64,000 nucleotides of DNA, from NCBI RefSeq assembly GCF_002157835.1, contig NZ_CP020809.1:6758001-6822000 (forward strand), given 5' to 3'. The translations under genes and the position numbers were made by a program. Position 1 is the first letter of the stretch; each line of letters begins with the position of its first letter. This DNA comes from Mycobacterium dioxanotrophicus. GTDB lineage: Bacteria > Actinomycetota > Actinomycetes > Mycobacteriales > Mycobacteriaceae. Positions 337 to 46,493 of the stretch are shown piece after piece. A model generated the notes under the pieces. The model was not told where the DNA came from. It saw only the letters and a program-made list of their open reading frames with translations, and did not search any database.

Positions 337-1409
337 GGGGACGGCCCAGACAACACAGGAGTGACGCCTGATGACCGACGCACTGGGGTTGTCGATCGGG
401 ACAACCAACCTGGTGGCTGCCCGCGAGGGCCGTCCGCCGGTCGTTCGCCGCTCGATCCTCACGCTGTTCGCCGACCGAGCTCCCGAGGTCGGCGAATACG
501 GCGGTCATGGCCTGGCGCTGACGGGGTTCGTCGAGCGGGTGGGCGACCCCGTGCCGATCGTCGCCGCCGACGGTTCGCAGCATCGCGGTGAGCTCGCACT
601 CGCCGAGGCCCTCGACGCGATGGCCCACGCTGTCGGTGGTGGTGCACCCGTCACGATCGCCGTCCCGGCCTACTGGGGCCCCGCCGCTGTCGGCGCACTG
701 CGCGGCGCACTGCGCGGCGCGCTGCGCGGCAGACCCGCCCTGGCTCCCGACGGCATTCCCGCCGAACTCGTCCCCGACTCCCTGGCCGCGCTCGCGGCGT
801 TGCGCACCGGTCCCGGCCTGCCCACCGAAGGCGTCGTGGTGCTGTGCGACCTCGGCGGCAGCGGCACCAGCGTGACACTGGCCGACGCGAGCGCGGGCCT
901 GTCCCAAATCGGCCAGACCGTGCGATACCCGGACTTCTCCGGCGACCAGGTGGATCAGGCGCTGCTCAACCATGTGCTCAGCGGTGTCGCCGCTGCAGGC
1001 AATGCCGACCCGGCCGGGACGGCCGCGGTCGGTTCACTGGCCCGGTTGCGTTCCGACTGCCGCCAGGCCAAGGAACAGTTGTCCGCCGACACCGTCGCTG
1101 TCGTCCCGACCGACCTTCCCGGGTTCACCTCCGATGTCCGGGTGACGCGCTCCGAGCTCGAACAACTCGTCGCCGAGCCACTGACCGGGCTACTGAACAG
1201 CGTCGCAGACATGCTGCAGCGCAACAACATTGCGTTGTCGAGCGTGACAGCGGTGGCGACGGTCGGCGGCTCGGCCGCGATCCCACTGGTGACCCAGCGG
1301 CTGTCGGAGCACCTGCGCGCACCGGTCGTCACGTCGCCGCAGCCGCAGCTGACCGCCGCGGCGGGTGCAGCGCTCGTGGCCGACGTCGTCGCCGACGCAG
1401 GCGCCCCGA

Positions 1410-1510
1410 CCGGGATGGCCCCGGGATCATCGCGGCCGACGCGCCGACCGGTCTGGCGCCGGGGATCAACCCGCGGACGTCCCGACCGGCATGGCGCCGA
1501 GCGCCTGGGC
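1410..1510 (+). repeat. Imperfect 39-nt tandem repeat (x-P-T-G-M/L-A-P) spanning both frameshifts
   Basis: Three successive copies encode APTGMAP, APTGLAP and VPTGMAP, but each is in a different reading frame. The repeat lies in the linker between the nucleotide-binding domain and the membrane helix. Runs of G and C next to each frame change make this a spot prone to slippage or miscalling. Confidence 0.6.
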
Positions 1511-1849
1511 GGCGGGCGCGGCCGGTGCTGCCGCGGCCGACGGCGCCGCGTCCGCGACGTTCCGCTCGCTCGCGTGGTCGCAGGACGACGACGCCCCCAC
1601 CGACGAACCGGTCCCCTACGCCGGACCGGACTACAACTACAACTACGAGAGCGGCGGGACGGGCCCGACCTCGGCCCGCCCGCAGATGGCGTTCGCCCAC
1701 GAAGAAGAGGCGTTCGAGGCCGAGCCCGCACCACTGCCCTGGTACAGGCGGCCGGTGATCCTGTTCGCGGCGGCGGCCGCCGCGGTCCTGCTCGCGGCGG
1801 GTGGTCTCGCCGTGACGCTGACCAGCTCGTCTGGCGACTCGACGCCGGT

Positions 1850-2216
1850 GACCGAGACCAGCACCACGGTCTCGATGTTGCCGCCGGTCACCACGGTCAC
1901 CGTCGGCCCGGACGGTCAGGGCACCACCACCGTCATCACCCCGACAACCGTCATCACCCAGACGCACACGCCGACGGACACCGCCACGTCCGGCACCACG
2001 ACGAGCGAGTCGCCCACCACCACGACCACGAGTCCGACCACGACAACCACCACGACAACGACCACCACCACGGCGCCCACCACGACGACAACGACCACCC
2101 AGCCGACCACGACAGCGCCGACGACAACCCAACCGACGACAACCCAACCGACCACCACCAAGCCGCCGACCACGACACAACCGCCGGTCACCACGACCGC
2201 GGCCGGCGGCGGCGCC
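1850..2216 (+). repeat. Thr/Pro-rich low-complexity coding repeat
   Basis: ACC/ACG triplets with occasional CCG encode a long poly-Thr tract broken by Pro, with units such as TTTQPTTTQP. It is the predicted extracytoplasmic tail of the Hsp70-like protein and is probably disordered or glycosylated. The paralogue near 44.8 kb has a similar Pro/Thr tail. Confidence 0.8.
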
Positions 2217-2225
2217 TAGTCGGTC

Positions 2226-4727
2226 ATGTCGCACCCGGCGCCGGACACCGGCATGGACCTGCCGCCGGCTGCCCGCCGCGCCGTCGCGGCTGTGCTCGCT
2301 ACGCCGACCGCGCCGACGAAACTGCTGGTGACCGGTGGCATCGGGACCGGCAAGACGTCAGTGCTGGCCGCTGTGCGCGGCGCGCTGCGCGATGCCGGGC
2401 GGGTGGTACTGACCCGTCCGCCCCGCGCCGAGGACGCCGCAGATGCGGCGTACGTCGTGGACGATGCGCACCTGCTCGCCGACGCCGAACTCGCTGCGTT
2501 CGTCGAGCACATCACCGATCCGGCAGCGACCGTGGTGGTCGCGGCCGCACCCCTGGCGCACCGGCCGGCACTGCGGGCACTGGCCACCGCGCTGCAGCGG
2601 GAAAGCCCGGAAGTCATCCTTGGCCCGCTGCCCGCTACCGAGGTCAACCACATCCTCACGACCGCCCTGGGCGCATCCCCGTCGTCCGAAACCGTCCGCT
2701 CGGTCCTGATCGCGACCGCCGGCCTGCCGTTGCTGGTGACCGCGGCCGCGCAGGCCACGACGCCGCCCGAGCAGTCCGCCCGGTTCGCCCTGATCGACCG
2801 CTTGCGCCGCATCGATGAACGCACCCGCGACACCCTGCTGATCACGTCACTGAGTCAGGGCCTTGGTCCCGATGACGTGGCCGCGGCGTTGCATTGCAGC
2901 GGCGCCGACGCAGTCGACCTCGTCGACCGGGCCCGGGCCTGCGGCCTTGTCGAACCGTCCTACGATCGCCGGTTCGTGCGGCTCGTGCACGAGTGCCTCG
3001 CGCAGATCGCGGGGGCCGCGCGGCATCACGAGATCGAGACGTCGCTGCTGAATTCGCAGTTGGGGATGTCGACGCTGTCGGCGGATCTTGCGGTGCAGCT
3101 GGCCGAGCACGGTCTGCGCGACGACCGGTTGGCCGATGCACTGATCGAGCGTGCGGTCGAGGTGCACGGCCGCCCGGCCCGCGCGGCAGCGCTGTACCGG
3201 GCCGCCGCCAAGGCCGGGTCCATCTCGGGTAGTGCGCGGCTGGCCGATGCGCTGGCCCTGACGGGCGATTGCGCGACGGCCGGCCGGATGGCCGATGAAC
3301 TGCTGGAATCCGACGACGCCGGCCAGCGGGCGGCGGCGGTCCGGGTCGCTGCCAGTGTCGCCGCCCATGACGGCAACGCCGTGGCGGCAGCGGATCTGTT
3401 CCGGTGGCTGGGCCCGTATCCGGATGCTTCGGTGAGTGCGGCGGCCGTCGTCGTGGGTCTCGCGGCGGGCGACCTGCCGACGGCACGCGATGCGCTGACG
3501 GCCGAGCGCACGGGCCCGCCGACGGCCGCGGCCCGGGCGGCGCACAGCCTCGCTGAGGGCGTGCTGTCGTCGCTGGATCAGCCGTTCGCGGCCACCGTCG
3601 CCCGCCTCGGCCAGGCTCTCGCGAGCGAGCATCATGGTGGCGCCGTCGCCCCGGACACTCCGTCGGCGCTGGTCACGCTGGTTGCGCTGCACGGAGGCGA
3701 TCCGGTGCGCGCCCGCAGTGTGATCGGTCGGGCCGTGCGGGCCGAAGGTGCCGACGAAGTGCCTTTCACCGTGCACCGGCACCGGCTGCTGCAGGGCTGG
3801 GTGCGCATGCAGGACGGTCAGCTCGGGTCTGCCACTGCCGATGCGGCCGCGGCAGACCACGGCCTGCACCGGCGGGATGCCCTGTGGGCCGCCGCGCTGC
3901 GCACTGCCATCGCGCGCCGCGCCGGCGACAGCGGCGCCGTGCAGCAGCACTGGTACGCGGCCATGGAGGTCCTCGCCGAGTACTCGATCGATCTGTTTTC
4001 CCTGCTCCCGCTGGGTGAACTGTGGGTGGCAGGCGCACGCATGCGCCAGGTCGACCGCATGCAGCATGCCCTGTCGCAGGCGTTCGATCTGCTGGATTCG
4101 TTTGGCAAGCCGGTGCTGTGGTCGGTGCCGCTGCACTGGGCAGGCGTGCACGCCGGAATCCTGGCCAATTCGCCGGCCGCGGTGGCGCCGCACGGGCAGG
4201 CGCTGACCGCGGCCGCCGGGCAGAGCGCGTTCGCGCGAGCCCTCGCGCATGCGGGGCGCACTTGGCTTCGGGTGCTGGCCAACCAGGTCGACACCGACGA
4301 GGTCACCGTGGCCGCGCGGGCGCTTGCGCAGTACGGCCTGACGTGGGACGGCACTCGGCTGGCCAGTCAGGCGGCGCTGCAGACCCCGGATGCCCGGGTG
4401 TCGCAGGCGATGCTGCAGTTGGCCCGCGACCTCAAGCAGAGCAGCGCGGTCGATGAATCACCGCTGCCCGATGTCGCGGCCCTCGCGAAGGCTCCGGTGC
4501 CTGCGGCCCAGCCCGGATCGAGCTCCGCGGCGCGGTTGTCCGACCGGGAGCGCGAGGTCGCCGAGCTGCTCCTCCTCGGCATGCCGTATCGCGATATCGG
4601 CAGCCAGTTGTTCATTTCGGCGAAGACTGTCGAGCATCACGTGGCCCGCATCCGGCGGCGGCTGGGCGCCGAATCGCGCTCGGAAATGCTGTCGATGTTG
4701 CGGGCGATGTTGGCCGTTCAGAGCTGA
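2226..4727 (+). CDS. Large ATP-binding LuxR-family (LAL-type) transcriptional regulator, Rv0339c-like
   Basis: This 833-residue protein has a P-loop GGIGTGKTS at residues 37-45 and a Walker B-like AYVVDDAHLL at about 75-84. A long helical middle suggests TPR-like sensor repeats. The C-terminal LuxR helix-turn-helix starts at LSDREREVAELLLLG and includes KTVEHHVARIRRRLG. This is the STAND/LAL layout, in which an ATPase switch and ligand-sensing repeats control DNA binding. Length and order match M. tuberculosis Rv0339c (832 aa, from memory). The start lies 6 nt after the Hsp70-like stop, so the two are probably co-transcribed. It precedes etfD on the same strand. The inducer and target genes are unknown. 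Confidence 0.85.
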   Translation: MSHPAPDTGMDLPPAARRAVAAVLATPTAPTKLLVTGGIGTGKTSVLAAVRGALRDAGRVVLTRPPRAEDAADAAYVVDDAHLLADAELAAFVEHITDPAATVVVAAAPLAHRPALRALATALQRESPEVILGPLPATEVNHILTTALGASPSSETVRSVLIATAGLPLLVTAAAQATTPPEQSARFALIDRLRRIDERTRDTLLITSLSQGLGPDDVAAALHCSGADAVDLVDRARACGLVEPSYDRRFVRLVHECLAQIAGAARHHEIETSLLNSQLGMSTLSADLAVQLAEHGLRDDRLADALIERAVEVHGRPARAAALYRAAAKAGSISGSARLADALALTGDCATAGRMADELLESDDAGQRAAAVRVAASVAAHDGNAVAAADLFRWLGPYPDASVSAAAVVVGLAAGDLPTARDALTAERTGPPTAAARAAHSLAEGVLSSLDQPFAATVARLGQALASEHHGGAVAPDTPSALVTLVALHGGDPVRARSVIGRAVRAEGADEVPFTVHRHRLLQGWVRMQDGQLGSATADAAAADHGLHRRDALWAAALRTAIARRAGDSGAVQQHWYAAMEVLAEYSIDLFSLLPLGELWVAGARMRQVDRMQHALSQAFDLLDSFGKPVLWSVPLHWAGVHAGILANSPAAVAPHGQALTAAAGQSAFARALAHAGRTWLRVLANQVDTDEVTVAARALAQYGLTWDGTRLASQAALQTPDARVSQAMLQLARDLKQSSAVDESPLPDVAALAKAPVPAAQPGSSSAARLSDREREVAELLLLGMPYRDIGSQLFISAKTVEHHVARIRRRLGAESRSEMLSMLRAMLAVQS

Positions 4728-4938
4728 CGACAGCGTCCATCACACGTCCGAAAAACGAAGAATTTCGTGATGCATCCCGGGCGTGTCGCGGCTCGGTTTC
4801 GGCCCGTCGACGACGCGCGCGGTGGTCTGCTGCGCCGGGTTCGCAAGCCTTCCGCAAACGGCCCCGAAATCGACTTAGGGCAACCTTAGTGGCGCGGGTT
4901 CTGTGGTTGATGTCACTATAAGCAGGCACTGAGCTTAA

Positions 4939-4979
4939 GTTACCGATCAGTAACATGGATTTTGTTACCGGCGAGTAAC
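4939..4979. promoter_or_regulatory. Tandem 16-bp operator (GTTAC-N6-GTAAC, two copies) upstream of etfD
   Basis: Two copies, GTTACCGATCAGTAAC at 4939-4954 and GTTACCGGCGAGTAAC at 4964-4979, have identical 5-bp arms and a 6-bp centre and begin 25 bp apart. The first is symmetric at 14 of 16 positions. They sit 22-62 bp before the etfD start and overlap a possible -10 box (TAAGTT, 4936-4941), so a bound repressor would block the promoter. TTAC...GTAA palindromes are typical of TetR-family sites. A fatty-acyl-CoA-sensing repressor would fit the role of EtfD in beta-oxidation, but the regulator is not identified. Confidence 0.65.
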
Positions 4980-5000
4980 CACGAAACTGGGAGGCCCCCG

Positions 5001-7975
5001 TTGGAAAACAGCCTGGAGCATATGCTCACGACAGGCCGGTTGATCCTTGGATTGTTGGCAACAGCGATCGTCTTGGTATTCGCCGCCAAGCGCATCACGT
5101 GGCTGACGAAACTGATCAGCTCCGGGCAGAAGCTCGGTGACGAACGCGGCCGCAAAGACGATCTGGTCCGTCGCTTCCTGAACCAGAACAAGGAAGTCTT
5201 CGCGCAGTCCAAGCTGCTGAAGTGGTCCATCCCGGGTCTCGCGCACTTCTTCACGATGTGGGGCTTCTTCGTCCTGGCCACGGTGTACCTCGAGGCCTAC
5301 GGCGTGCTGTTCAACCCCGAGTTCCACATCCCGCTGGTCGGCCGCTGGCCGGTGCTCGGCTTCCTGCAGGACTTCTTCGCCGTCGCCGTGCTGGCCGGCA
5401 TCGTCGTCTTCGCGATCATCCGCATCCGCAAGAACCCCGAGCAGATCGGCCGCGAATCCCGGTTCTACGGTTCGCACAACGGCGGCGCCTGGACGATCCT
5501 GATCATGATCTTCCTGGTCATCCTGACCTACGCGATCTTCCGCGGCGCAGCGGTCAACGTGCTCAACTACGAGGGTCGCGCCGCCTTCCCGTACCAGTCC
5601 GGTGCGTTCTTCTCCGACGGCATGGCCGCCCTGCTGGCTCCGCTGGGCCACACCGCCAACCTGTGGCTGGAGACCGTGGCACTGATGGCCCACATCGGCG
5701 TCATGCTGGCGTTCCTGCTGATCGTGCTGCACTCCAAGCACCTGCACATCGGCCTGGCCCCCATCAACGTCACGTTCAAGCGCCTGCCGGACGGCCTCGG
5801 CCCGCTGCTGCCGATGGAGTACAAGGGCGAGAAGATCGACTTCGACGATCCCGCCGAGGACGCGGTGTTCGGCAAGGGCCGCATCGAGGACTTCACCTGG
5901 AAGGCCAACCTCGACATGGCGACCTGCACCGAGTGCGGTCGCTGCCAGTCACAGTGCCCGGCTTGGAACACCGGCAAGCCGCTGTCCCCCAAGCTCGTGA
6001 TGATGAACCTGCGCGATCACCTGTTCGCCAAGGCTCCGTACATCATCGAAGGCAAGCCGATGCCCGAAGAGGGCACGGTTGATTTCGCCAAGCTGGGCGA
6101 CAGCCTGCACGCGCACGGTGTGCCCGAAGACGGCTTCGCCCGCATCGGAGGTTCCGGCCCCGAGCAGGCGCTGCGCCCGCTGGTCGGCACCGCTGAACAG
6201 GGCGGCGTCATCGACCCCGACGTCCTGTGGTCCTGCACCAACTGCGGCGCCTGCGTCGAGCAGTGCCCGGTGGACATCGAGCACATCGACCACATCGTCG
6301 ACATGCGCCGCTACCAGGTCATGGTCGAGTCTGAGTTCCCCGGTGAGCTCGGCGTGCTGTTCAAGAACCTGGAGACCAAGGGCAACCCCTGGGGCCAGAA
6401 CGCCAAGGACCGCACCAACTGGATCGACGAGGTCGACTTCGACGTTCCGGTCTACGGCCAGGACGTCGAGAGCTTCGACGGCTTCGAGTACCTGTTCTGG
6501 GTCGGCTGCGCCGGCGCCTACGAGGACCGCGCCAAGAAGACCACCAAGGCCGTTGCCGAACTGCTGGCCGCTTCCGGCGTGAAGTTCCTGGTTCTGGGCA
6601 CCGGTGAGACCTGTACCGGTGACTCGGCTCGCCGCTCCGGCAACGAGTTCCTGTTCCAGCAGCTGGCCGCGCAGAACGTCGAGACCATCAACGAGCTGTT
6701 CGAGGGTGTCGAGACGGTCGACCGCAAGATCGTGGTGACCTGCCCGCACTGCTTCAACACGATCGGTCGCGAATACCCGCAGCTGGGTGCCAACTACACC
6801 GTCGTGCACCACACGCAGCTGCTCAACCGCCTGGTGCGGGACAAGAAGCTGGTGCCGGTCAAGTCCACGGGTGGCCCCGAGGTCACCTACCACGACCCGT
6901 GCTTCCTGGGCCGTCACAACAAGGTCTACGAGGCTCCGCGTGAGCTGGTCGAGGCCTCGGGTGTGACGCTCAAGGAAATGCCCCGCCACGCCGACCGCGG
7001 CCTGTGCTGTGGTGCCGGTGGCGCGCGGATGTGGATGGAAGAGCACATCGGCAAGCGCGTGAACGTCGAGCGCACCGAAGAGGCGATGGACACCGCCTCG
7101 ACGATCGCGACCGGCTGCCCGTTCTGCCGCGTGATGATCACCGACGGTGTCGACGACGTGGCCGCGGCCCGCAACGTCGAGAAGGCCGAAGTGCTCGACG
7201 TGGCCCAGCTGCTGCTGAACTCGCTGGACAAGAGCGTCATCACGCTGCCGGAGAAGGGCGCGGCCGCCAAGGAATCCGAAGCTCGCGCGGCCGTTCGCGC
7301 CGAGGCCGAGGCCAAGGCCGAAGCTGCTGCGGCAGCCGCGGCTCCCGCTCCGGCGGCGGCCGAACCCGAGGCGCAGACCGCGGCACCGGCCGCATCGACG
7401 GCCACCGACACGGCGGCCAAGCCGGTCACCGGCCTGGGCATGGCCGGCGGTGCCAAGCGTCCGGGAGCCAAGAAGGCCGCTGCCGCCCCGGCAGCATCCG
7501 CGGCTCCGGCAGCCGAAGCACCCGCCGCCCGGTCAAGGGCCTCGGCATCGCCGGCGGCGCCAAGCGTCCGGGAGCCAAGAAGACCGCTGCCACCCCGGCA
7601 GCGTCCGCGGCTCCTGCGGAGGCAGCGCCTGCGGCACCCGCCGCTCCGGTGAAGGGCCTGGGTCTGGCAGCCGGTGCCAAGCGTCCGGGAGCCAAGAAGG
7701 CGGCTCCGGCCGCGCAGGCTCCCGCCGCTGCGGCGCAGCCTGCTCCGGCAGCGGCAGCTCCGGCCAAGCCCGAGCCCCCGGTGGTGGGTCTGGGCATCGC
7801 CGCGGGCGCCCGTCGTCCCGGCGCAAAGAAGGCCGCGCCGAACAACAACGCGGCTCCTGCCGCACCGGCACCCGCCGCGGCCGCCCCCGCCGCACCGGCG
7901 GAGCCGGCCAAGCCTGAGCCCCCGGTGGTGGGCCTGGGTATCAAGCCGGGCGCCCGGCGCCCCGGCAAGCGCTAG
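5001..7975 (+). CDS. etfD: EtfD, membrane Fe-S oxidoreductase for electron-transfer flavoprotein (C-terminal frameshift)
   Basis: Orthologue of Rv0338c, which takes electrons from EtfBA during acyl-CoA dehydrogenation and passes them to the respiratory chain. The N-terminal part has several membrane helices resembling NarI. Two 4Fe-4S motifs follow (CTECGRCQSQCP near residue 309, CTNCGACVEQCP near 412), then two CCG domains (TCPHCF near 580, LCCGAGG near 669). TTG at 5001 is the chosen start because GGGAGG lies 6 nt before it; a TTG at 4962 lacks this. Near 7528-7530 a C-run is one base short. The annotated frame then stops at 7652, while the repeat-bearing tail continues in another frame to 7975. 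Corrected, the protein has about 991 residues. The catalytic part is unaffected. A sequencing error or natural tail loss are both possible. Confidence 0.88.
7424..7972 (+). repeat. Five tandem GLG-GAKRPGAKK motifs in the EtfD tail
   Basis: Five copies of a motif V-x-G-L-G-(I/L/M)-x-x-G-A-(K/R)-R-P-G-(A/K)-K are separated by Ala/Pro-rich linkers of roughly 15-30 residues. Copy 1 lies before the frameshift and copies 2-5 after it. The tail is basic and probably disordered, with a possible role in binding acidic lipids or a partner protein. Confidence 0.75.
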
Positions 7976-7990
7976 ATCAGTACCGCGCAG

Positions 7991-8040
7991 TGGCCAGTTA
8001 TGGCACAGGTTCTCCGTGAACTGTGTGTCATGACTGGCCA
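7991..8040. repeat. Long hairpin with TGGCCAGT-ATG ends between etfD and aspC
   Basis: A 50-bp imperfect inverted repeat opens with TGGCCAGTTATGGCACAG and closes with a matching CATGACTGGCCA; the arms pair over about 20 bp. There is no T-run. A second hairpin with the same TGGCCAGTTATG end lies at 22881-22928, downstream of dcd. It may act as a Rho-independent-like 3' structure or belong to a dispersed palindrome family. Confidence 0.6.
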
Positions 8041-8097
8041 TTGGCGTTTCTGTGGCTTACACCGCAAATTGCAAAACAACTGGACGACGGTGAGACC

Positions 8098-9372: not shown

Positions 9373-9410
9373 GCGCCAATCCGGCGCAGTAACCGGACAG
9401 CTCGGCGCTC

Positions 9411-9416
9411 TACCCT
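9411..9416 (+). promoter_or_regulatory. -10 box (TACCCT) for a leaderless yibE/F transcript
   Basis: TACCCT matches TANNNT and ends exactly 6 nt before a GTG at 9423, the spacing seen for leaderless mycobacterial genes. No Shine-Dalgarno sequence is present, which favours GTG 9423 over GTG 9417. Confidence 0.5.
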
Positions 9417-9422
9417 GTGCGG

Positions 9423-14412: not shown

Positions 14413-14419
14413 GGCGGCC

Positions 14420-15430: not shown

Positions 15431-15467
15431 GCCCGGAGAAGTACCCGGGCATGCCCGTTCTCACGCC

Positions 15468-15833: not shown

Positions 15834-15839
15834 GAACGA

Positions 15840-19375: not shown

Positions 19376-21019
19376 CTAGTGTCCGCCACCGAACGGCCAC
19401 GGCCAGATGGAGCCGCCGCCGTTACCGCCACGGCTGCCGCCGTCATTGCCGTGACCACCCGAACCAGGATTCCAGCCGTTGTCGCCACCGCGTCCGCCGG
19501 AACCGGAACCGGGGTTCCAGCCGCCCGAGCCTCCGCCGGAGTTGGAACCGGGGCCCCAGTCTCCGGAGCCGTTACCGGAGTTGCCCGGGTACGGGTAGTC
19601 CGGGTTCTGCCGCGACGGCGGCTGCCACGGATAGTCGGGCTCGTCGACGGGCTGACGCTGCCACGGCGGCTGCCACGGTGAGCGCCGCGGCGGGTCGATC
19701 ACCGGGGGACGCAGGAGCGGCGGGAGCACCACCACCGGCGGGATGTAGCCCGGCGGGTTGTAGATCGGCGCGGGGGCGGGCAGGACCGGCACCGGTGCCG
19801 CGGGCGGCGGTGGTGGCGGTGCCTCGGGTGCGGGGGCGGGCGCCGCCGGAGGCGGGGCCTGCGGGACGGCCGCGGGCTGCTGGTCGACGACGACCGTGCG
19901 CGGCTGCGGGGCCTCCTGCACCACCGGAATCGGAGCCTTGATGGTCTCCGGCGGCGGTGCGGGTGGCGGCGCCTGCGGCGCGGGCTGCGCCTCCGGGACC
20001 GGCGCGGGGGCCGGTGCCGCGGGCTTGACCGGGGCGGCCGGGATCACCGCGCCCTGCGCGGGGGCGGGCCGCTGGTCGACGGTCGGGCGGATGCTGACCG
20101 CCAGCGAAATGACCAGCGCGACAACGCCAATGACGAAAATGGAGGTCAATGCGCTACCGACCAGCAGGAACGGCTTGCGCCCCTCGTCGACCGGAACGTC
20201 GTCGGCAACGGATTCGAACGCATCCAACTCGGTGCCGACGGGCGCCAGTTCGGTGGGCAATGCAGCCAGGCCGGCGTATGCGCTACCGGCCGTGGTGCCG
20301 TCAGGATCCTGCGAGTAGGCCAGACCGACGGTGGACGCCTCAAGCGCAGGCGCATTCGCCGCCGCCAGGGCAGCGCCCCGGGCCAGCGCGAGTTCGGGTT
20401 CGTCGGGCGCGCTGACGGGCAGCGACACCAGGTTCTCCAGCTGGGCCTTGACCGAGCTGACGTCGACGCCCGAGCCGACCACGAACATGGCCTGCGGCGC
20501 GGCGTCCTGCGCGTCGACGGCGGCGGCCAGCTCACTGAGCACGGCCATCGCGTCACTGCTGTGCAGGCTGCGGCCCAGCACCTTGACCACGGAACCGTCG
20601 TCGGTCTTGACCACCGACAGCGTCGCCGCGTCGCGGTCGATGAACAGCAGCGCCGTGGTGTCATAGCCGACCGCGTGACCGACCGCCTGGGCCAAGGCCG
20701 CGGCGGCGTGCCCTTCCGACACCAGCATGACGTCGTCGATCCCGTGTGCGGTCAGGGCGTCGCGCAACGCGGAGGCGTCCGAATGGTCGGTCCACGTGAC
20801 CCCGGTCGCCTTCAATTGGTGCCCGCCCGCCACGGCGCTCTCTTGGGTTCCGAGCACCGCCGCGACCACTTGATCCGCCGCACTCATGGTTGCCGAGCCG
20901 TCGCCGCCGTTGACGTCGAAGACGTCGTGATCGACGGTGACGCCGTCGGCTTTCTCCCCCTCGACCAGCACCATGCGGACCGTCGTAGGTGTCATCGACA
21001 CACCTAATACGATGTCCAC
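19376..21019 (-). CDS. DUF7159-type membrane protein with actin/Hsp70-like fold and Pro/Gly-rich tail
   Basis: A 547-residue protein. The N-terminal domain resembles a degenerate actin/Hsp70 fold: VLGVSMTPTTVRMVLVEG, then ALLFIDRDAATLSVVKTDDG, then MFVVGSGVDVSSVKAQL and LALARGAALAAANAP. One membrane helix lies at about 284-310. The outer tail is Pro/Ala-rich, then Gly/Asn/Pro-rich (NPGSGSGG repeats) and ends near WPWPFGGGH. GTG 21019 is chosen because GGAGGG lies 4 nt before it. The architecture matches the two Hsp70-like proteins at 371-2219 and 44631-46493, although sequence similarity is low. It sits between udgA and amt, a position not found in M. tuberculosis. Function unknown. Confidence 0.78.
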   Translation of the reverse strand: MDIVLGVSMTPTTVRMVLVEGEKADGVTVDHDVFDVNGGDGSATMSAADQVVAAVLGTQESAVAGGHQLKATGVTWTDHSDASALRDALTAHGIDDVMLVSEGHAAAALAQAVGHAVGYDTTALLFIDRDAATLSVVKTDDGSVVKVLGRSLHSSDAMAVLSELAAAVDAQDAAPQAMFVVGSGVDVSSVKAQLENLVSLPVSAPDEPELALARGAALAAANAPALEASTVGLAYSQDPDGTTAGSAYAGLAALPTELAPVGTELDAFESVADDVPVDEGRKPFLLVGSALTSIFVIGVVALVISLAVSIRPTVDQRPAPAQGAVIPAAPVKPAAPAPAPVPEAQPAPQAPPPAPPPETIKAPIPVVQEAPQPRTVVVDQQPAAVPQAPPPAAPAPAPEAPPPPPPAAPVPVLPAPAPIYNPPGYIPPVVVLPPLLRPPVIDPPRRSPWQPPWQRQPVDEPDYPWQPPSRQNPDYPYPGNSGNGSGDWGPGSNSGGGSGGWNPGSGSGGRGGDNGWNPGSGGHGNDGGSRGGNGGGSIWPWPFGGGH

Positions 21020-35144: not shown

Positions 35145-35171
35145 CGGTGGTTGGTCTTTCGGTGCAGCGAT

Positions 35172-35235: not shown

Positions 35236-35320
35236 TGTTATCGGGTGGTTCTGGCGGACAGGGCCCAGAAACAATCCCGCGATCCCTCGGATGCCGGAAG
35301 TAATGGAATCGTGGCGATCC

Positions 35321-36031: not shown

Positions 36032-36036
36032 GACGG

Positions 36037-38307: not shown

Positions 38308-38826
38308 GTTCGTGTCCTTTGCGGACGACAGTTCCAGCTACCTTGACGACTTGCGATGTTACAGCGGCAGATCGAGGTTCTGCGAGCCCTTGGCCGGATC
38401 CGAGAGCCACCGGCACAGCGCGATTGAGGCCGGCCTTTTTGCGGAGTCAAAAATCAAGGACGACAGGGGATGCCGGGCATTTCTAAGCATGCGAACGTTG
38501 AACCGTGGCGCGGTCGGCACCGTGTCATCAGTGACGACCAGATTGGAGCGCTGACGACCGAAGCTGATCAACGATCACCAGTAGTACCTGGCCCACGGGA
38601 CGAGACTGCAGTAGTGCGTTACTCAATCTCGCCGCACCACACGGCATCCATAATTCACGGTGTTGGAGATGGTCTCCAGGAGAGGACGGATCATAGGGGC
38701 CGCGGTGCGCCAAATTCCATCGGCAGCACTGCGCCGACGCTGTTTTCAGTTAGCCTGAAATGACCGACGCCACAGGCCAGTCCCCCTTGGGCCCGGCAGT
38801 GATAGCTGAGCGAACGGAGGCGGTGG
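38308..38826. other. 519-bp divergent spacer, no gene seen
   Basis: This stretch lies between mmpL and the FAD monooxygenase gene and is visibly less GC-rich than its neighbours. It must hold both promoters. Short open frames have poor codon use and no ribosome site. I see no strong palindrome or RNA structure. Confidence 0.5.
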
Positions 38827-40053: not shown

Positions 40054-40826
40054 CGCTCAAACGGTTCCTGGCGCCGCTGCGCTGGTCGGTCATCAACACG
40101 TTCCTGCTGCCGCGGACATTCGCGCGGACCGGCCAGTTCGGTGACGGCCGGGAGGCCGCGGCCGCCGAGTACGTGCTGGCCAACGCCCGCCGAGGCGACG
40201 TCGACGACGTGCTGGCCACCATGGACCGATTCGCCTATGACAAGACCTTCCTGATCAGCGTCGGCGACGAGAAGGGCGAATTGCTCGACGCCGCGGTCAA
40301 ACGCGCCGACACCCGTCTGGCACTCGAGCTCGGTACCTACTGCGGTTACGGCGCGCTGCGAATCGCCCGTTCCGCGCCGACGGCGAAGGTGTTCTCGGTG
40401 GAGTGGGCGCAGGCCAACGCCGACATCGCCCGGCGGATCTGGGCACACGCCGGCGTGGACTACCGGATCACGTGCGTCGTCGGCATGATCGGCGACGGCG
40501 GGCGCACTCTGCAGGCACTCGAAGACCACGGATTCCGGGCCGGCGCCCTGGACCTGTTGTTCCTCGACCACGTCAAGAGCGCATACCTGCCAGATCTGCA
40601 CAGCATCGTCGAGCGGGGATGGCTGCATCCCGGTTCGATCGTCGTCGCCGACAACGTCAAGATCCCGGGCGCCCCGAAGTACCGCGAATACATGCGCCAG
40701 CAGCAGGGCACGACGTTCGACACCATCGAGCACAACACCCACGGCGAATATCAGACGGTGGTCCGGGACCTGATGCTGGAGTCGGTCGTCCTGCCCGCAT
40801 CACGCGACGGCCGGGTGAACGGGTAG
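40050..40826 (+). CDS. Catechol-type O-methyltransferase
   Basis: A 258-residue class I methyltransferase like catechol O-methyltransferase: YDKTFLISVGDEKGELLDAA before the SAM loop LALELGTYCGYGALRIA, then FSVEWAQANADIARRI and LLFLDHVKSAYLPDLH with the metal-binding Asp, and VVADNVKIPGAPKYREY with Asp-Asn. These positions are normal for Mg-dependent COMT. It methylates an unknown hydroxylated compound, perhaps the product of the monooxygenase it overlaps. Its last 76 bp overlap the opposite-strand rhomboid-like gene. Confidence 0.9.
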   Translation: MTLKRFLAPLRWSVINTFLLPRTFARTGQFGDGREAAAAEYVLANARRGDVDDVLATMDRFAYDKTFLISVGDEKGELLDAAVKRADTRLALELGTYCGYGALRIARSAPTAKVFSVEWAQANADIARRIWAHAGVDYRITCVVGMIGDGGRTLQALEDHGFRAGALDLLFLDHVKSAYLPDLHSIVERGWLHPGSIVVADNVKIPGAPKYREYMRQQQGTTFDTIEHNTHGEYQTVVRDLMLESVVLPASRDGRVNG

Positions 40827-41410
40827 CAGCACAGGCCGATCAGCAGAGCGCAGAGATGCCCGATAGCGGTGAAGTTGATGTTGCCCACCAGCGCGGCCCC
40901 GAAGTAGATGAACGCCGTCCCCAGATACACCCACCGCCAGGGCCGCACGATGCGGTATGCCAGCACCGCGCCCACCCCGACCAGGAAATAGCTGACCCCG
41001 ATGTCGCGCACGTGGACGAGACGCTCTGGCGCGACGTGATCGTGGATCGCCAGGTACAGCAGGCCTTCGCTGATGTAGGTGGCCAGCACGTGGGCGATCA
41101 AGCCGACACTGAGCCACCGGATTTGTCCGAGCCAGCGTTCGGCGGGCGCGAGGATGAGGCTGAACAGTACGAGATACGGCGTCCAGAAGCGGCCGTCGAT
41201 CCAGAAGAGGCTGGTGACCAGCACGTAGAGCGGGTCGGTCTCCAGGTGGTGGATGTTGGTCGAGCTCTGGATCAGCAGGACGTGCAGGTCCCGCCCGTGC
41301 AGTTGGTGCTGAATGATCGTGGTGACCAGCAGGGCCGCCAGCCAGGTGTAGGTCAGCGGCGCGCTGCGGACATACCGCCACACCGCCGTCAGCCACGAAT
41401 TCAGACGCAC
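40751..41410 (-). CDS. Rhomboid-like membrane protein
   Basis: A 219-residue protein with six hydrophobic helices. The rhomboid serine motif appears as DIGVSYFLVGVGA (GxS) and the His as IGHLCALLIGL, so both catalytic residues may be present, although the family of actinobacterial rhomboid-like proteins is not proven to be proteolytic. The GTG start has CATACT ending 6 nt upstream, a possible leaderless promoter. The C-terminal end overlaps the methyltransferase gene on the other strand. Confidence 0.75.
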   Translation of the reverse strand: MRLNSWLTAVWRYVRSAPLTYTWLAALLVTTIIQHQLHGRDLHVLLIQSSTNIHHLETDPLYVLVTSLFWIDGRFWTPYLVLFSLILAPAERWLGQIRWLSVGLIAHVLATYISEGLLYLAIHDHVAPERLVHVRDIGVSYFLVGVGAVLAYRIVRPWRWVYLGTAFIYFGAALVGNINFTAIGHLCALLIGLCCYPFTRPSRDAGRTTDSSIRSRTTV

Positions 41411-41499
41411 GCGCCCAGTATGCGCACGTCGGCATCGTCGTGCCCTCGATCAAGCTGTGGACGAGCTGTCAGCCTCGAAGAACCGCCGCAGCCGGCGAG

Positions 41500-42189
41500 C
41501 TAGCGCAGATAGACCTCGCCGCCGGTCGGGTAACCGCCGCCGGTGGTGGTGAGGTGCACGTGGTCGTAGTGGCCGTAGCCGCCGCTCTGCGGGCCGCTCG
41601 GCGTGTAATAGGTGCCGCGCCAGATAGCGTCCTGCAGCCCGAACCGGTCCGCGTTCTTCAGCGCGTACGCGACGATCGCATTGCCCAGCGCGATGCCCTC
41701 GGCACTGCTGGGGTTGGGGATCATCACGTCGAGCGCCAGCCCGTCGGGATGCCAGCGCAGCGCGTCGGGTCGAACCCCTCCGATCTGGTGAATCTCGGGG
41801 AACGCTGCGCTGACGGCTCGGGCCGTCAGGATCGTCCGGACCTGTAGGCCCCGTTCGGGCGCGACCCCGACCGGCAGGAAGCGGGGGACGACGGCGACGG
41901 GTACGACGCGGTAGTGCGAGCGTGAAGCCGCCTGCAGGGAGACGACGGACATGCCCGAGTCCTCCTCGGACGGGGCTGACGAGAACTTGCTCCGCACCGG
42001 CGTGACCACCTGCAGACCGCTCGCGACATCACCCTCGATGACCGATTTGGCGGCTTGCCCGGAGCTGAGTTCAGCGGCGCTCCCGCCGACGGCGAAGAAC
42101 ACCGCGGTCGAGGCGAGCACGGTAGCGCCGACGGCCGGTGATACCCGCCGCCGACTGGCTAATGCGTGCCGACCCACACGGAGCACCAT
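41500..42189 (-). CDS. Exported protein with M15/ARB_07466-like C-terminal domain
   Basis: A 229-residue protein. An N-terminal helix (VGATVLASTAVFFAVGGSAA) serves as signal or anchor. The C-terminal domain contains WHPDGLALDVMIP and GYGHYDHVHLTTTGG, which resemble the SxHxxGxAxD and ExDHxH zinc motifs of M15-type peptidases; the first His, the Asp and the final His-x-His are visible. It may act on peptidoglycan or simply share the fold. ATG 42189 is used; a GTG at 42177 with TATGGT 7 nt upstream is an alternative. Confidence 0.75.
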   Translation of the reverse strand: MVLRVGRHALASRRRVSPAVGATVLASTAVFFAVGGSAAELSSGQAAKSVIEGDVASGLQVVTPVRSKFSSAPSEEDSGMSVVSLQAASRSHYRVVPVAVVPRFLPVGVAPERGLQVRTILTARAVSAAFPEIHQIGGVRPDALRWHPDGLALDVMIPNPSSAEGIALGNAIVAYALKNADRFGLQDAIWRGTYYTPSGPQSGGYGHYDHVHLTTTGGGYPTGGEVYLR

Positions 42190-42391
42190 ACGAGCGGCTC
42201 AGGATCCGTGCAGCAACCCCCCAGCCGATCTTGGAGTTTCCTCAGAGTCTCGCCAGATAACACACAATCGACTTTTTGGTGCGCACCGACACGCAATCGT
42301 GACCTGTGAGCGGCCGATTCGCTCGCCGCGCGGCGTGCCACCTAGGCGACTAAACGAATTGAAAATGTCATCCCGGTCAGGTGCCGCCCGC
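42190..42391. other. Upstream region of the M15-like gene, no gene seen
   Basis: This part of the 709-bp gap carries the promoter side of the minus-strand gene. The stretch at 42240-42370 is AT-richer. I recognise no operator or riboswitch. Confidence 0.4.
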
Positions 42392-42858
42392 TACGCTCCT
42401 ACCCAAAATTGACGCAGCCGTACATCGCGGGGGGCGCCGGTCCATGAAGCCGTGGGATGGCGGGCGCCCGAAGACCCGCCGCGTCATCCTCGGGGAGAAA
42501 GCCGTCGCGACGCGCGGCCTTTCGTTGCGGTACGCCACCGAGCAGATCCGCTCATCGACGGACTGGTGCTGCCACGACGACACCCGCAATCCAAACCCAC
42601 GCAGCGGTTTCCACGCCGGGCAAGCCGGGCACCACAGCGAACTCGACAGCCACCAAACGACTCTCAGACGTCGGCAAGCGAATCTGCGGCAGCATCAACA
42701 AGATCGGCCAAGGACTCAAGAAGGCCTTCGCCAAACCGGCCAAGTCAGACAAACCCAGCCAAGCAAACAAGAGCGACGCCGGTGCAGGCGGTTCGGGGGA
42801 CGCCGAACAGCACCGACGTGATCGGTCCCCTCGCAGCCAGGGAGGGGACCGATTTTTT
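42392..42858 (+). other. Candidate short transcript ending at an intrinsic terminator (sRNA or small-protein gene)
   Basis: A possible -10 box TACGCT (42392-42397) starts the unit, and a perfect terminator ends it at 42858. Inside, one frame begins at ATG 42444 (MKPWDGGRPKTRRVILGEKA) with good codon use for about 40 codons. Another frame, +1 relative to it, then encodes a Lys-rich segment (LSDVGKRICGSINKIGQGLK). A frameshifted small gene or a structured RNA are both possible; no known RNA family was recognised. Confidence 0.4.
42821..42858 (+). terminator. Perfect intrinsic (Rho-independent) terminator
   Basis: ATCGGTCCCCTC pairs perfectly with GAGGGGACCGAT around a 9-nt loop and is followed by TTTTTT. 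Such canonical terminators are uncommon in mycobacteria. Its direction requires a plus-strand transcript from the left, where no annotated gene exists. Confidence 0.9.
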
Positions 42859-42898
42859 GGTGCGGGAAGACCACCGACGGGTCACTGACAATGGGTAG

Positions 42899-43486
42899 AT
42901 GCACCGGATCAGCGTCATCGCCGCGGCGGCCGTGTCCGCCGGACTGCTCGCGGCACCGCAGGCGAGTGCGTCGCCCGATGCCGGCGCGCTGGCCGCACTC
43001 ACACCGGTGGACGCCAGCACCTATGGCACCTACAGCACGTACGGCGCCGGCGGCTGGCAGTTCACCACCGCTGACGGCATCCACTGCCGCATCATGACGA
43101 TCACCCGCTGGCAGAGCCCGCCGACGGCAGATTGTTGGGGTTCGTTGCCAGGTGTCACTGGGAGCACCAACTATGCCTTCGCCAAAGGGCCATGGTTCGG
43201 CCCGACGGACGATGTGAGATCAGGGCTCGGCACCGCGAACCTCGAGGACTTCGAAACCTACCGGAGCTACGAGCACCGCAGCGGCCCCGACGTCGACCGG
43301 GTCGATCCGGCGTCGTATCACCTGCTGCCGACCGGCTCGAAAATTGTGGTGCCAGAGGATAGTTCGTCCGTCACCTGCGGTGTGCCGAGCGACCACAACG
43401 TGGTGTGCACAGTGGCAGGAACCGGCCAGGACGGGCCATGGCAATACGGATTCGTGTTGAGCCCGCAGGGCAGCCGGTCGTTCTAG
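42899..43486 (+). CDS. Secreted hypothetical protein
   Basis: A 195-residue exported protein. The signal peptide (MHRISVIAAAAVSAGLLAAP) ends at QASASPDA. Four Cys residues in the mature part (HCRIMTI, ADCWGS, TCGVPS, VVCTVAG) probably form two disulfides. The sequence has Tyr/Gly/Thr-rich stretches and no enzyme motif. Many mycobacteria carry families of such small secreted proteins. GACAAT ends 6 nt before the ATG, so translation may be leaderless. It converges with the GH16 gene. Confidence 0.8.
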   Translation: MHRISVIAAAAVSAGLLAAPQASASPDAGALAALTPVDASTYGTYSTYGAGGWQFTTADGIHCRIMTITRWQSPPTADCWGSLPGVTGSTNYAFAKGPWFGPTDDVRSGLGTANLEDFETYRSYEHRSGPDVDRVDPASYHLLPTGSKIVVPEDSSSVTCGVPSDHNVVCTVAGTGQDGPWQYGFVLSPQGSRSF

Positions 43487-43510
43487 AACGTCTACCCCGC
43501 GGGCGAACGA

Positions 43511-44392
43511 TCAGCCTTGGAAGATGCGGATCCAGTCGATCAGCATCTCGGCCGGGTAGCTCCCGCCGCTGGGATCGCGACCGCCCGAGCCACCGACAGC
43601 GATGTTGAACACCGGCACCAGGGTGTAGCCCGGATCGTTGAACGGCCAGTCGTCCAACGAGTTCGCCGGAACCGAGAAGAACGGCTCCATGCCTGCCGCG
43701 TAGTCCTTCCAGAAGTACATGCCCTGCGGCGTCCACGACATGCGCCAGGTGTGCCACCCGCCGTCGATCGGGTGAGGATCGGTAGCGAACGATTCACCGT
43801 CGAGCCGGGCGTGCACCGTTGTGCCCGAAGGCCAGTCGCGGTTGCCGTACCACTCGACCAGGTCAACCTCGCCGCCACGAACCGGATCGTCGTTGAGGAG
43901 CCAGAACGCGGGCCAGGCACCGTCGGTCAGGCAGTTGAGCTTGACGCGGGCCTCCCAGGTGGTGCCGATGCCGCCCCGCCAGTTCCCGATGACCTTGGCG
44001 CTCGCGTACTTCTCCTGGATCGTCGTGCCAGGGCCGCGCGTCGCACGGATGACGAGGTTGCCCTTGCCATCCTGGAACACGTGGTCGGTGTCGGTCACGT
44101 ACCGCCCCATGTTGAACGGTTTGTCCCATTCGACCGGGTTCTTGATGGTCTCGCGCTCAGGCACCAGGTGCCGCCACGCTGGATCCGGCGGAGTTCCGGC
44201 AGGTCCGTTGAATTCATCCTGGAACAGGTAGTTGGGCGTTCCAGCAGCAGCCGGCACCGGAGCTCCGGGCGCGGCGGGTCCGGGCGGGTTTCCCCCCACG
44301 GGGTCTGCGTTGGCGACCCCTGCAGGCAGCGCCGCGGCTGCCACCCCCAGACCCATCATGAACATCACACTGCGACGATCCATATCAGGCAC
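43511..44392 (-). CDS. Secreted GH16 beta-1,3-glucanase-like protein (Rv0315-like)
   Basis: A 293-residue protein with a Tat-type signal (DRRSVMFMMGLGVAAAALPA), a Pro/Ala linker and a family 16 glycoside hydrolase domain. The catalytic motif ExDxxE is seen in GGEVDLVEWYGNRDWPSGTT, and IGTTWEARVKLN and AFWLLNDD line the cleft. It is the orthologue of Rv0315. GTG 44392 is the chosen start: a TATTGT box ends 6 nt before it, and M. tuberculosis also has residues before the MDRR segment. An ATG at 44383 is the alternative. Confidence 0.9.
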   Translation of the reverse strand: MPDMDRRSVMFMMGLGVAAAALPAGVANADPVGGNPPGPAAPGAPVPAAAGTPNYLFQDEFNGPAGTPPDPAWRHLVPERETIKNPVEWDKPFNMGRYVTDTDHVFQDGKGNLVIRATRGPGTTIQEKYASAKVIGNWRGGIGTTWEARVKLNCLTDGAWPAFWLLNDDPVRGGEVDLVEWYGNRDWPSGTTVHARLDGESFATDPHPIDGGWHTWRMSWTPQGMYFWKDYAAGMEPFFSVPANSLDDWPFNDPGYTLVPVFNIAVGGSGGRDPSGGSYPAEMLIDWIRIFQG

Positions 44393-44398
44393 AGGCAC

Positions 44399-44404
44399 AC
44401 AATA
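44399..44404 (-). promoter_or_regulatory. -10 box (TATTGT) for leaderless GH16 gene
   Basis: Minus-strand TATTGT, a 6-nt gap, then GTG 44392. It supports the start choice. Confidence 0.45.
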
Positions 44405-44430
44405 GAGGGGCTAAGCACGCTCCTGCGTAC

Positions 44431-44630
44431 TTAGGTGCTGTGAACGTGTTCGCGTCCGGCGGCGACATCGCGGCCATTGAGGTAAACCTGCAGCTCCCGG
44501 CCCAATCGAGCCGTCTGACCCGAACGAATCCAAATCAGCCGTCTCGACTCCACGCCGAATTCGACGTGAATGTTGTCGATCGCGACGGCGAACGACGTTT
44601 CCGTCGAATTCGGCGCAGGGGCTCCACCCG
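44431..44630. other. 200-bp stretch with overlapping small frames on both strands, unresolved
   Basis: On the minus strand a frame beyond the Hsp70-like stop encodes AVAIDNIHVEFGVESRRLIW and more, ending at 44431, with no clear start. On the plus strand a GTG at 44440 begins MNVFASGGDIAAIEVNLQLP, preceded by AGG, and runs to 44640. Codon use does not decide between them. Confidence 0.3.
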
Positions 44631-46493
44631 CTACGGCTGATAGGGCGACCCGTACGGGTTCTGCTGCTGATACGGATACTGCGGCTGATACGGGTTCTGC
44701 TGATACGGGTATTGCGGCTGCTGGGTGGTCGGGTTCGTGTTGGGCACCTGAATCGGAATCGGCACCGGGACGAACGGCACCGTGATGTAGGTCGTCGTCA
44801 TCGGATTCGTCGTCGTGGTGGTCGTCGTCGGTGTCGTGGTGGTCGTCGTCGGCGGCGTGGTCGTCGTCGTTTCGGTGGTCGTGGTGGTGGTCGTCGTGTG
44901 CGTCGGTGGTGGTGGCGGCGTCGACGTCACGGTCACCACCCGGGTCTCCGTCTGCGGCGGCGGGGGTGGTGGGGGCGCTTCGGTCACCGGGGCCGGTGGC
45001 GGGGCCGCCTCGGTCACGGGTGCTGGCGGGGGCGGCGGTGCCGCCGACGGAGGTGGCGGTTCTACCGGTGCGGCCTGCTTCTGGGTCACGGGTTGTGGTG
45101 GAGGCGGCGGCGCCACCGATGTCGTGGCGGTGTCCGTGGCACTGGTCAGCGCATAGGTCACCCCACCGATGGCGACTACCACCAACGCAGCGGCGACGCC
45201 GAACACTGCCACGGGCAGCTTCTGCCACGCCGACCGGGGTTCTTCGATCGGACCGGTCCGCGGTACGTAGTGCACGGTCGGGCGCGCAGCGGTCTGCGTT
45301 CCGAACGACTCCAGATCCGGCCCGGTGTAGGGCACCACGTCGTCGTCGGTGTCGTCCTGAGACCAGGCCAGCGCCCGGAAGGTCGACGAATCCGGCTCCT
45401 GCGGCGTCATTTCCGGTATCGGGGTCGCGGCGGTGGCTTCGAGCGTCGGAGCCACTCCGGTCTGGACGTCGGCGTCCGCGGAATACGCCGCGGCGAGCGC
45501 GCCACCGATCGCGGCATCCAGGGCCGGCTGCGGCGTCATCACCACCTGGGCCTGCGAATGCTCCGAAAGTTGTTGGGTGACAATCGGAATGTTCGCACCG
45601 CCGCCGATGGTGACCACAGCGGCCACCGCGGGCCAGCCAATTCCGTTGCGCTCCAGGGCCGTTTCCAGCGCCGCCAAGGCACCGGCCAGCGGCTGCCGCA
45701 TCAGCGTCTCGAGCTCGGCACGGGTCACCCGGACAGTCGCGGAGTATCCCGGCAGTTCGACCATGAGGTCGGTGGCAGTCTCCGCCGACAACCGCTCCTT
45801 GGCCTGCCTGCACTCCTCGCGCAGTCGGGCCAACGATCCCACCGCCACGGTGCCCGCGGGATCGATACCACCGGCCTGCGCGACACCGTCGAGCACATGG
45901 GTCAGCAGCGCCTGGTCGATCTGGTCACCCGAGAAGTCCGGATAACGGGTGGTCTCGTCGATCGGCGCGAACGACGCTCCCGCGTCGGCCAGGGTGATGC
46001 TGGTGCCGCCGCCACCGAAATCGAGCAGCGCCACCACGCCGCTGAGCGGTAGCCCCGGGTTTGCCCGCAGCGCCGTCAACGACGCCACCGCGTCGGAGAC
46101 GAGCCGGGCGGGCATCCCGTCGTGGGACAGGTTCGGGTTGGTGCGCATGGCGCTGCGCAACGCGCGCAGCGTCGGCGCGCCCCAGTGGGCGGGAACCGCG
46201 ATCGCGAGCTGCGGCGACGGGCCTCCTGCGGCATCGACCATCGCGTCGAGCGCCTCGACCAGCAGGGCGTCGGCGGGGTACGACGCCCCGTCGGGCGCCA
46301 CCAGCGGTACCGGGTCACCAACCCGTTCCACGAATCCGGCCAACGTCACACCGTGCGCGTCGGCGGGCACGCCGACCTGCGGCGTGCGGTCTGCCGACAA
46401 GGTCAATACCGATCGCCGTATCACAGGTTGATTGCCGACGCGCGCCGCAACCAGGTTGGTGGTCCCGATCGACAACCCAAGCGGGTCGCTCAT
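44631..46493 (-). CDS. Hsp70-like membrane protein with Pro/Thr-rich tail, Rv0312-like
   Basis: A 620-residue protein, equal in length to Rv0312. Residues 1-340 form an Hsp70-type nucleotide-binding domain: LGLSIGTTNLVAAR (residues 5-18), LLDFGGGGTSITLAD (156-170) and VTIGGGANIPIVTQQL (294-309). In Hsp70 the phosphate-1 loop has an Asp; here it is Ser 8, and the second loop lacks the second Asp. There is no substrate-binding domain. A membrane helix lies at about 426-450, followed by a Pro then Thr then Pro/Tyr/Gln-rich tail (YQQNPYQPQY). ATG 46493 is preceded by TACTGT. It is paralogous to 371-2219. Confidence 0.88.
   Translation of the reverse strand: MSDPLGLSIGTTNLVAARVGNQPVIRRSVLTLSADRTPQVGVPADAHGVTLAGFVERVGDPVPLVAPDGASYPADALLVEALDAMVDAAGGPSPQLAIAVPAHWGAPTLRALRSAMRTNPNLSHDGMPARLVSDAVASLTALRANPGLPLSGVVALLDFGGGGTSITLADAGASFAPIDETTRYPDFSGDQIDQALLTHVLDGVAQAGGIDPAGTVAVGSLARLREECRQAKERLSAETATDLMVELPGYSATVRVTRAELETLMRQPLAGALAALETALERNGIGWPAVAAVVTIGGGANIPIVTQQLSEHSQAQVVMTPQPALDAAIGGALAAAYSADADVQTGVAPTLEATAATPIPEMTPQEPDSSTFRALAWSQDDTDDDVVPYTGPDLESFGTQTAARPTVHYVPRTGPIEEPRSAWQKLPVAVFGVAAALVVVAIGGVTYALTSATDTATTSVAPPPPPQPVTQKQAAPVEPPPPSAAPPPPPAPVTEAAPPPAPVTEAPPPPPPPQTETRVVTVTSTPPPPPTHTTTTTTTTETTTTTPPTTTTTTPTTTTTTTNPMTTTYITVPFVPVPIPIQVPNTNPTTQQPQYPYQQNPYQPQYPYQQQNPYGSPYQP

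What the first reader, a model, noticed from the sequence alone, without database searches (positions are those of the whole stretch)
371..46493. Three membrane-anchored Hsp70/actin-like proteins with Pro/Thr-rich outer tails in one 46-kb region
Seen: genes at 371-2219, 19376-21019 and 44631-46493 each encode an N-terminal nucleotide-binding-type domain, one membrane helix and a low-complexity outer tail. Two are clear paralogues with an Hsp70 layout but no substrate-binding domain. In both, the phosphate-1 loop Asp of Hsp70 is Ser (LGLSIGTTNL) and the second Asp of the phosphate-2 loop is missing. The DUF7159 protein shows a weaker, similar pattern. Inference: a class of degenerate ATPase sensors linking cytoplasmic nucleotide state to the cell wall, partly next to iniB.
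Basis: partly seen in the sequence, partly recalled or inferred. Interest (0 to 1): 0.8.

Follow-up and report, generated by a model that had tools for sequence, protein, structure and literature searches.

The report
Dead Hsp70 partner of bacterial dynamins
Mycobacteria and related bacteria carry membrane-anchored proteins built from the ATP-binding half of the Hsp70 chaperone with most catalytic residues replaced, and several of these genes sit beside those of a drug-induced membrane-cutting dynamin system, so they look like an overlooked part of a known envelope-stress machine.

Summary

Beyond the finding: iniR, the iniBAC regulator, follows the 371 gene by 7 nt, and iniB-iniA-iniC diverge from it. 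In 201 family genomes the Hsp70-like gene and iniA occur in 106 and 110, both in 100; 91 of 95 same-contig pairs lie within 10 kb. Hsp70-like genes beside iniA in distant actinomycetes keep the catalytic residues; those read in other Mycobacteriaceae genera lack the first Asp and the Lys; the window's genus also lacks the second phosphate-2 Asp. Best reading: a catalytically dead, envelope-facing Hsp70 scaffold or switch of the IniA/IniC dynamin module. The mechanism is inferred. Copies such as the 44631 gene are not beside the dynamins and may do other work.

The parts
371..1415 (+). HspA: Hsp70-type nucleotide-binding domain piece (first reading frame; end approximate)
   Evidence: Pfam HSP70 E 2.3e-22; 60% identical to the 44631 gene's NBD
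1480..2219 (+). HspA: linker with conserved LAWSQDD motif, one membrane helix, Thr/Pro tail (another reading frame; start approximate)
   Evidence: translation; linker and helix conserved in relatives; frame differs from the NBD piece
2226..4727 (+). iniR, STAND-type ATPase and transcription regulator of iniBAC; starts 7 nt after HspA
   Evidence: NCBIfam NF038181, 1378 bits against a cut-off of 750
44631..46493 (-). HspB: Hsp70-like pseudo-ATPase with membrane helix and Pro/Thr tail (probably the Rv0312/MSMEG_0692 type; this orthology is recalled from gene neighbours, not tested)
46452..46481 (-). HspB phosphate-1 loop LGLSIGTTNL; Ser in place of the Hsp70 Asp
   Evidence: alignment with own DnaK; Ser in 103 of 106 rows
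45360..45371 (-). HspB linker motif LAWS (residues 375-378) in a predicted disordered region
   Evidence: AWS in 96 of 101 genus proteins; pLDDT under 50 for residues 342-421
45141..45230 (-). HspB membrane helix (model residues 422-451)
   Evidence: more Lys/Arg before than after the helix in 91 of 100 relatives
19376..21019 (-). DUF7159 protein: minimal ASKHA-fold domain, membrane helix, Pro/Gly-rich tail
   Evidence: Pfam PF23717 E 1e-18; fold matches

Best explanation
The Hsp70-like proteins are catalytically dead, membrane-anchored Hsp70 nucleotide-binding domains, and the ini-linked ones act as the envelope-facing partner of the Ini dynamin module (IniA, IniC, IniB, IniR). Shown by sequence and models: Hsp70 NBD fold, missing catalytic residues, a single helix with a positive-inside signal, a Thr/Pro tail, and gene linkage to iniA/iniC and iniR. 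Inferred: the tail sits in the periplasm or wall; the NBD, perhaps locked in one nucleotide-bound shape, docks IniA/IniC (and for HspA perhaps IniR) at the membrane through the NBD or the conserved LAWSQDD linker, so that envelope damage is coupled to dynamin action and to iniBAC expression; an ancestral version hydrolysed ATP, and the lineage with IniB kept the scaffold and dropped hydrolysis.
Against: No interaction, localisation or nucleotide binding was tested. Six family genomes have the Hsp gene without iniA and ten have iniA without an Hsp hit at E 1e-40; 44 of 45 genus genomes hold an Hsp gene but only 35 hold iniA, so some copies, HspB among them, persist without the dynamins. PMC11898655 lists MSMEG_0692/Rv0312 among proteins crosslinked to FhaA, a polar-growth context. 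The link with IniB may rest on one or few events, and absence of the IniB domain was judged by one profile at E 1e-3. The IniA profile was built partly from loci found through the Hsp gene; one search used one mycobacterial IniA only. Counts are not corrected for relatedness.
Confidence: 0.5

Rival explanations
1. HspA is the nucleotide sensor of the IniR switch: it binds ATP without hydrolysing it, holds the MalT-like IniR at the membrane and releases it when ATP rises or the envelope is damaged (as MalK holds MalT in E. coli).
For: Hsp stop to IniR start is -50 to 18 nt in 25 genus loci and -22 to 50 in 13 further rows. Suppressing the ATP burst suppresses the iniBAC promoter, and the authors leave the sensor open (PMC6104191, passages). 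IniR is MalT-like, and MalT is held by the maltose uptake system (PMC5760070, discussion).
Against: An Hsp gene stands directly upstream of iniR in 22 of 34 genus genomes; of the other 12 several end at contig borders, but in G150, G412, G397 and G419 the Hsp gene lies beyond the 3' side of iniA instead. PMC5760070 names a dnaK-like gene by iniR only for M. smegmatis, as a difference, and calls it downstream of iniR; the ATP link was measured in BCG, so on that account HspA beside iniR cannot be required there. Nucleotide binding is untested.
Confidence: 0.2
2. HspB mainly serves polar growth and peptidoglycan synthesis through FhaA, and its likeness to the ini-linked paralogues is only ancestry.
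For: MSMEG_0692 is one of 25 proteins exclusive to FhaA pull-downs (PMC11898655, section 5); the 52 HspB loci are linked to SnoaL-like (50 of 52) and often GH16 genes rather than iniBAC; Hsp genes persist in genomes without iniA.
Against: Direct or indirect crosslinks, FhaA overexpressed; says nothing about HspA and HspC. That HspB is the MSMEG_0692 type is recalled.
Confidence: 0.2
3. The proteins are still slow ATPases or chaperones using other acidic residues.
For: The fold, adenosine site, D199 and an acid at the E175 place are kept.
Against: P1 Asp, catalytic Lys and D206 are gone in the genus rows and no substrate-binding domain was found. The intact relatives show what the active form looks like.
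Confidence: 0.1

Closest known systems
Hsp70/DnaK nucleotide-binding domain (PF00012)
   Same: Fold over about 330 residues, adenosine-site glycines, K271 and S275, first phosphate-2 Asp
   Different: No substrate-binding domain found; P1 Asp, catalytic Lys, D206 lost; membrane helix and outer tail added
Ssz1 of the yeast ribosome-associated complex (6sr6; its non-hydrolysing nature is recalled)
   Same: Hsp70 fold in a scaffold role; rank 46
   Different: Soluble, eukaryotic, keeps a substrate-binding domain (named in the 6sr6 title)
Rv0312 / MSMEG_0692 (proline- and threonine-rich protein)
   Same: One membrane helix, ATP-binding annotation, Pro/Thr-rich; probably the HspB orthologue (recalled, not aligned here)
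   Different: What I saw in print is the FhaA pull-down; I saw no fold, catalytic-residue or ini-module analysis
iniBAC / IniR envelope-stress module
   Same: The window's iniR and the neighbouring iniB*, iniB, iniA, iniC are this module
   Different: In the papers I saw, the Hsp70-like member appears only as a dnaK-like gene in M. smegmatis
DUF7159 (PF23717)
   Same: Pfam family of the third protein
   Different: Pfam gives no function; the ASKHA fold is shown here by prediction

Membership tests
Hsp70 | NBD fold | tested here: met
Hsp70 | Catalytic constellation D10, K71, E175, D199, D206 | tested here: not met
   Only D199 kept in all 106 rows; E175 is Asp in 106, D10 is Ser in 103, D206 is Ser in 101; no Lys in the K71 motif columns
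Hsp70 | C-terminal substrate-binding domain | tested here: not met
   Pfam match ends at model positions 376 and 373 of 599; low-complexity tail follows
Hsp70 | ATP binding and hydrolysis | not testable with these tools
   needs purified protein
MreB/actin | Match over the family's curated cut-off and closest fold | tested here: inconclusive
   MreB_Mbl 27.6 bits against 27 for the HspA piece, 15.4 for HspB; one search lists 50 rows only
DUF7159 (PF23717) | Match over the curated cut-off | tested here: met
   68.2 bits against 27
ASKHA superfamily (for DUF7159) | Duplicated RNase H-like fold | tested here: met
iniBAC module | IniR, IniB N-terminal domain, IniA/IniC dynamins next to the gene | tested here: met
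   NF038181, NF038175, NF038176 over cut-off; IniA E 0 to 6j72; Dynamin_N over cut-off in IniA and IniC; gene order. True for the 371 gene and the L010 copy, not for HspB at 44631

The most novel reading that the evidence does not exclude
An Hsp70-fold membrane protein is an ancient core component of the actinomycete IniA/IniC dynamin machine. It began as an ATPase and lost hydrolysis step by step in the lineage where the IniB domain joined the module, ending in mycobacteria as a pseudo-ATPase scaffold or switch that links the cell wall to dynamins and to IniR. This would be a bacterial pairing of an Hsp70-type pseudoenzyme with a dynamin system.
Probability: 0.5. Interest if true: 0.78.

Novelty: new variant of a known kind. 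Interest (0 to 1): 0.62.

Why it matters
iniBAC is the isoniazid/ethambutol-induced operon, yet what positions IniA/IniC, what IniB does and how damage is sensed are open. A conserved, envelope-facing Hsp70-type neighbour gives a concrete candidate that can be deleted, tagged and pulled down. The set of relatives also lays out the loss of an ATPase active site in steps while gene linkage stays, a natural series for asking what an Hsp70 domain does without hydrolysis. It also gives DUF7159 a predicted fold.

Tried and rejected
A single ORF for 371-2219: rejected. Programmed frameshift: considered; not my first choice because relatives carry one open frame and the L010 copy breaks in its tail too; not excluded. 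A linker that docks on the NBD as in Hsp70: the model leaves residues 342-421 unstructured, so no support. DUF7159 as a true Hsp70: no support in the 50 rows; profile comparison finds only 71 C-terminal columns, and the three- and four-row profiles gave probability 12.1. HspA next to iniR as obligatory: 22 of 34. Foldseek against 'pdb' was never accepted, so fold claims rest on VIA-align 2.

Counting notes. The 80 loci are the best 80 of 410 confirmed, ranked by likeness to HspB. In one search the K71 column was shifted by one residue against DnaK; the register was settled with the intact relatives and recounted. The pattern used could not have matched a Lys-Arg form; one search replaced it and also covered its 3 unmatched rows. 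In one search one of 12 pairs (L015) was dropped because its start was out of register. From I left out three short or odd rows (L151_5454, L152_4717, L155_14585) and the DnaK rows; those three and two DnaK fragments were also left out of the tree. L168 and L049 are the same locus. One search found no files and one search stopped with an error after its first two loci; one search did the rest. The Fisher value ignores relatedness. DUF7159 rings below the cut-off in one control (Caulobacter) and one other-genus genome. Literature searches for an Hsp70 or dnaK-like partner of iniBAC; of the papers I opened only PMC5760070 names one, and whether its 'downstream of iniR' gene is HspA or the extra copy seen downstream of iniR in 7 of 28 loci is open. 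The library lacks most subscription papers.
Full report
Observation. The window holds three genes of the kind described. The 46493-44631 gene (called HspB here) is one frame of 620 aa and the DUF7159 gene 21019-19376 one of 547 aa. The 371-2219 gene (HspA) is not one frame: its NBD and its membrane-tail part lie in different frames, the change falling inside a short repeat around 1410-1490. I left it as two pieces. Relatives are open (35 HspA-type ORFs of 512-741 aa) and the copy beside iniC in the same assembly also breaks, in its tail, so an assembly cause is likely but not proved.

More copies. The genome has, besides DnaK, four Hsp70-like genes: HspA, HspB, HspC (L010:8808-10694) and HspD (L011:2884-4677); and three DUF7159 genes. 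The other three NBDs are 48-60% identical to HspB. The nearest named relatives of HspB are Mycobacterium aquaticum, an unnamed Mycobacterium and Mycolicibacterium brisbanense, 96-97%.

Active site. In 106 rows (102 ORFs of 80 loci chosen for likeness to HspB, and four own-genome references) the P1 Asp is Ser in 103, Thr in 2, gap in 1; D206 is Ser in 101, Thr in 2, Asn in 2, Gly in 1; E175 is Asp in 106; D199, K271, S275 and both adenosine glycines are kept in 106. The K71 motif reads F-V/L-E/D/G-R-V/A-G-D in 105 rows with one gap, and no row has a Lys in its eight columns; intact relatives read EFKRR there. NBD dN/dS is 0.06-0.14 for five HspB pairs, 0.15-0.20 for five HspA pairs and 0.175 for one DUF7159 pair. 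So the altered site is conserved, not drifting.

Surroundings. HspA ends 7 nt before iniR (NF038181). On the other side, divergent, lie iniB* (Rv0340 family), iniB, iniA, iniC and, 75 nt further, HspC. IniA matches the solved IniA 6j72 at E 0; IniA and IniC both match Dynamin_N over its cut-off. Of 80 genus loci, 28 are of this type and 27 of them show iniA; the other is cut by its contig end. The other 52 are HspB loci, 50 with a SnoaL-like gene and many with GH16. Hsp stop to IniR start, extrapolated from the alignments, is -50 to 18 nt in 25 genus loci and -22 to 50 nt in 13 further rows, two of those from the genus and one of them a repeat of L049.

Beyond the genus. I took 25 loci from other genera and families, chosen by their Hsp hit: IniA is found in 22 and IniC in 22; in the three others iniA lies outside the stretch or on another contig (L148, L158, L160). 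A separate count with one mycobacterial IniA in 201 family genomes gives IniA in 110, Hsp (E 1e-40) in 106, both in 100; 95 pairs share a contig, 91 within 10 kb, 88 of these on opposite strands. In 198 phylum genomes: 9, 9 and 8. In 45 genus genomes: Hsp 44, IniA 35, IniR 34; IniA has an Hsp gene within 10 kb in 33 of 35 (not G398 and G420, both fragmented); an Hsp gene stands directly upstream of iniR in 22 of 34.

Stepwise loss. The Hsp genes of L161 and L163-L167, five of them in other families, keep D10, T13, T14, K71, E175, D199, T204 and D206; L161's P1 loop was cut and read. In 22 rows from other genera of the family, D10 is absent in 21 of 21 readable, K71 in 21 of 21 readable, D199 is kept in 22, D206 in 17, E175 in 18 (my count). 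In the genus D206 and E175 are gone too. The tree separates the intact group with DnaK from the 49 degenerate rows at 100/100 and makes the genus one clade at 99/95; its root is a midpoint. The IniB N-terminal domain is found in 19 of 19 family loci other than L161 and in 0 of the 6 loci with intact Hsp genes.

Topology and linker. Lys/Arg before the helix exceed those after it in 91 of 100 genus proteins; the tail is 41-58% Pro+Thr by type. The linker carries AWS in 96 of 101. Outer parts differ among distant relatives; one has a BON domain. A constant NBD and changing outer part suits a scaffold or sensor.

Literature. PMC5760070 (abstract, outline, passages, discussion): IniR, a MalT-like signal-transduction ATPase, drives iniBAC, with trehalose as cue; a dnaK-like gene by iniR is noted for M. 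smegmatis. PMC6104191 (passages): the iniBAC promoter follows an ATP burst; the sensor is left open. PMC6715688 (passages): IniA is a dynamin-like protein that cuts membranes with low activity, perhaps needing IniC. PMC11898655 (one passage and one section): MSMEG_0692/Rv0312 is in FhaA pull-downs. PMC13413693 (passages): no occurrence of Hsp70 or DnaK.

Mechanism. The most constant link is to the dynamins, the second to IniR. I judge a membrane-anchored pseudo-Hsp70 scaffold or switch for the dynamin module most likely (0.5); an ATP sensor or tether for IniR is a main rival (0.2). Hsp genes persist where iniA is gone, so some copies have other work, perhaps with FhaA (0.2 for HspB). DUF7159 is a separate minimal ASKHA family, over its cut-off in 6 of 101 family genomes, all of the genus, two copies lying near L,D-transpeptidases.

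Noticed in passing
L010:8808-10694 (HspC, own genome): The Pro-rich tail changes reading frame, as HspA does in its linker; two frame breaks in GC-rich low-complexity stretches of one assembly.
   Followed up: partly
L010:8308-8811: A 167-aa protein with a PWYRKP-membrane helix-Thr tail like that of HspA and HspD but no NBD; no Pfam match at E 0.01. The anchor-tail unit may be shared among unrelated proteins.
   Followed up: no
L012:27-1424 and L013:5085-5963: Two DUF7159 paralogues lie near L,D-transpeptidase genes (YkuD); the window also has a YkuD gene at 48370-47180, 0.7 kb from HspB's start.
   Followed up: partly
G096 contig C29, 12129-29122: Five DUF7159 copies close together in one genus genome.
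   Followed up: no
L164, L165, L166: Intact Hsp70-like relatives beside iniA/iniC carry different outer parts, one with a BON domain.
   Followed up: partly
L050, L057, L060, L064, L074, L076, L084: One or two extra HspA-like genes between iniR and the Fe-S oxidoreductase gene, in 7 of the 28 iniB-side genus loci.
   Followed up: no
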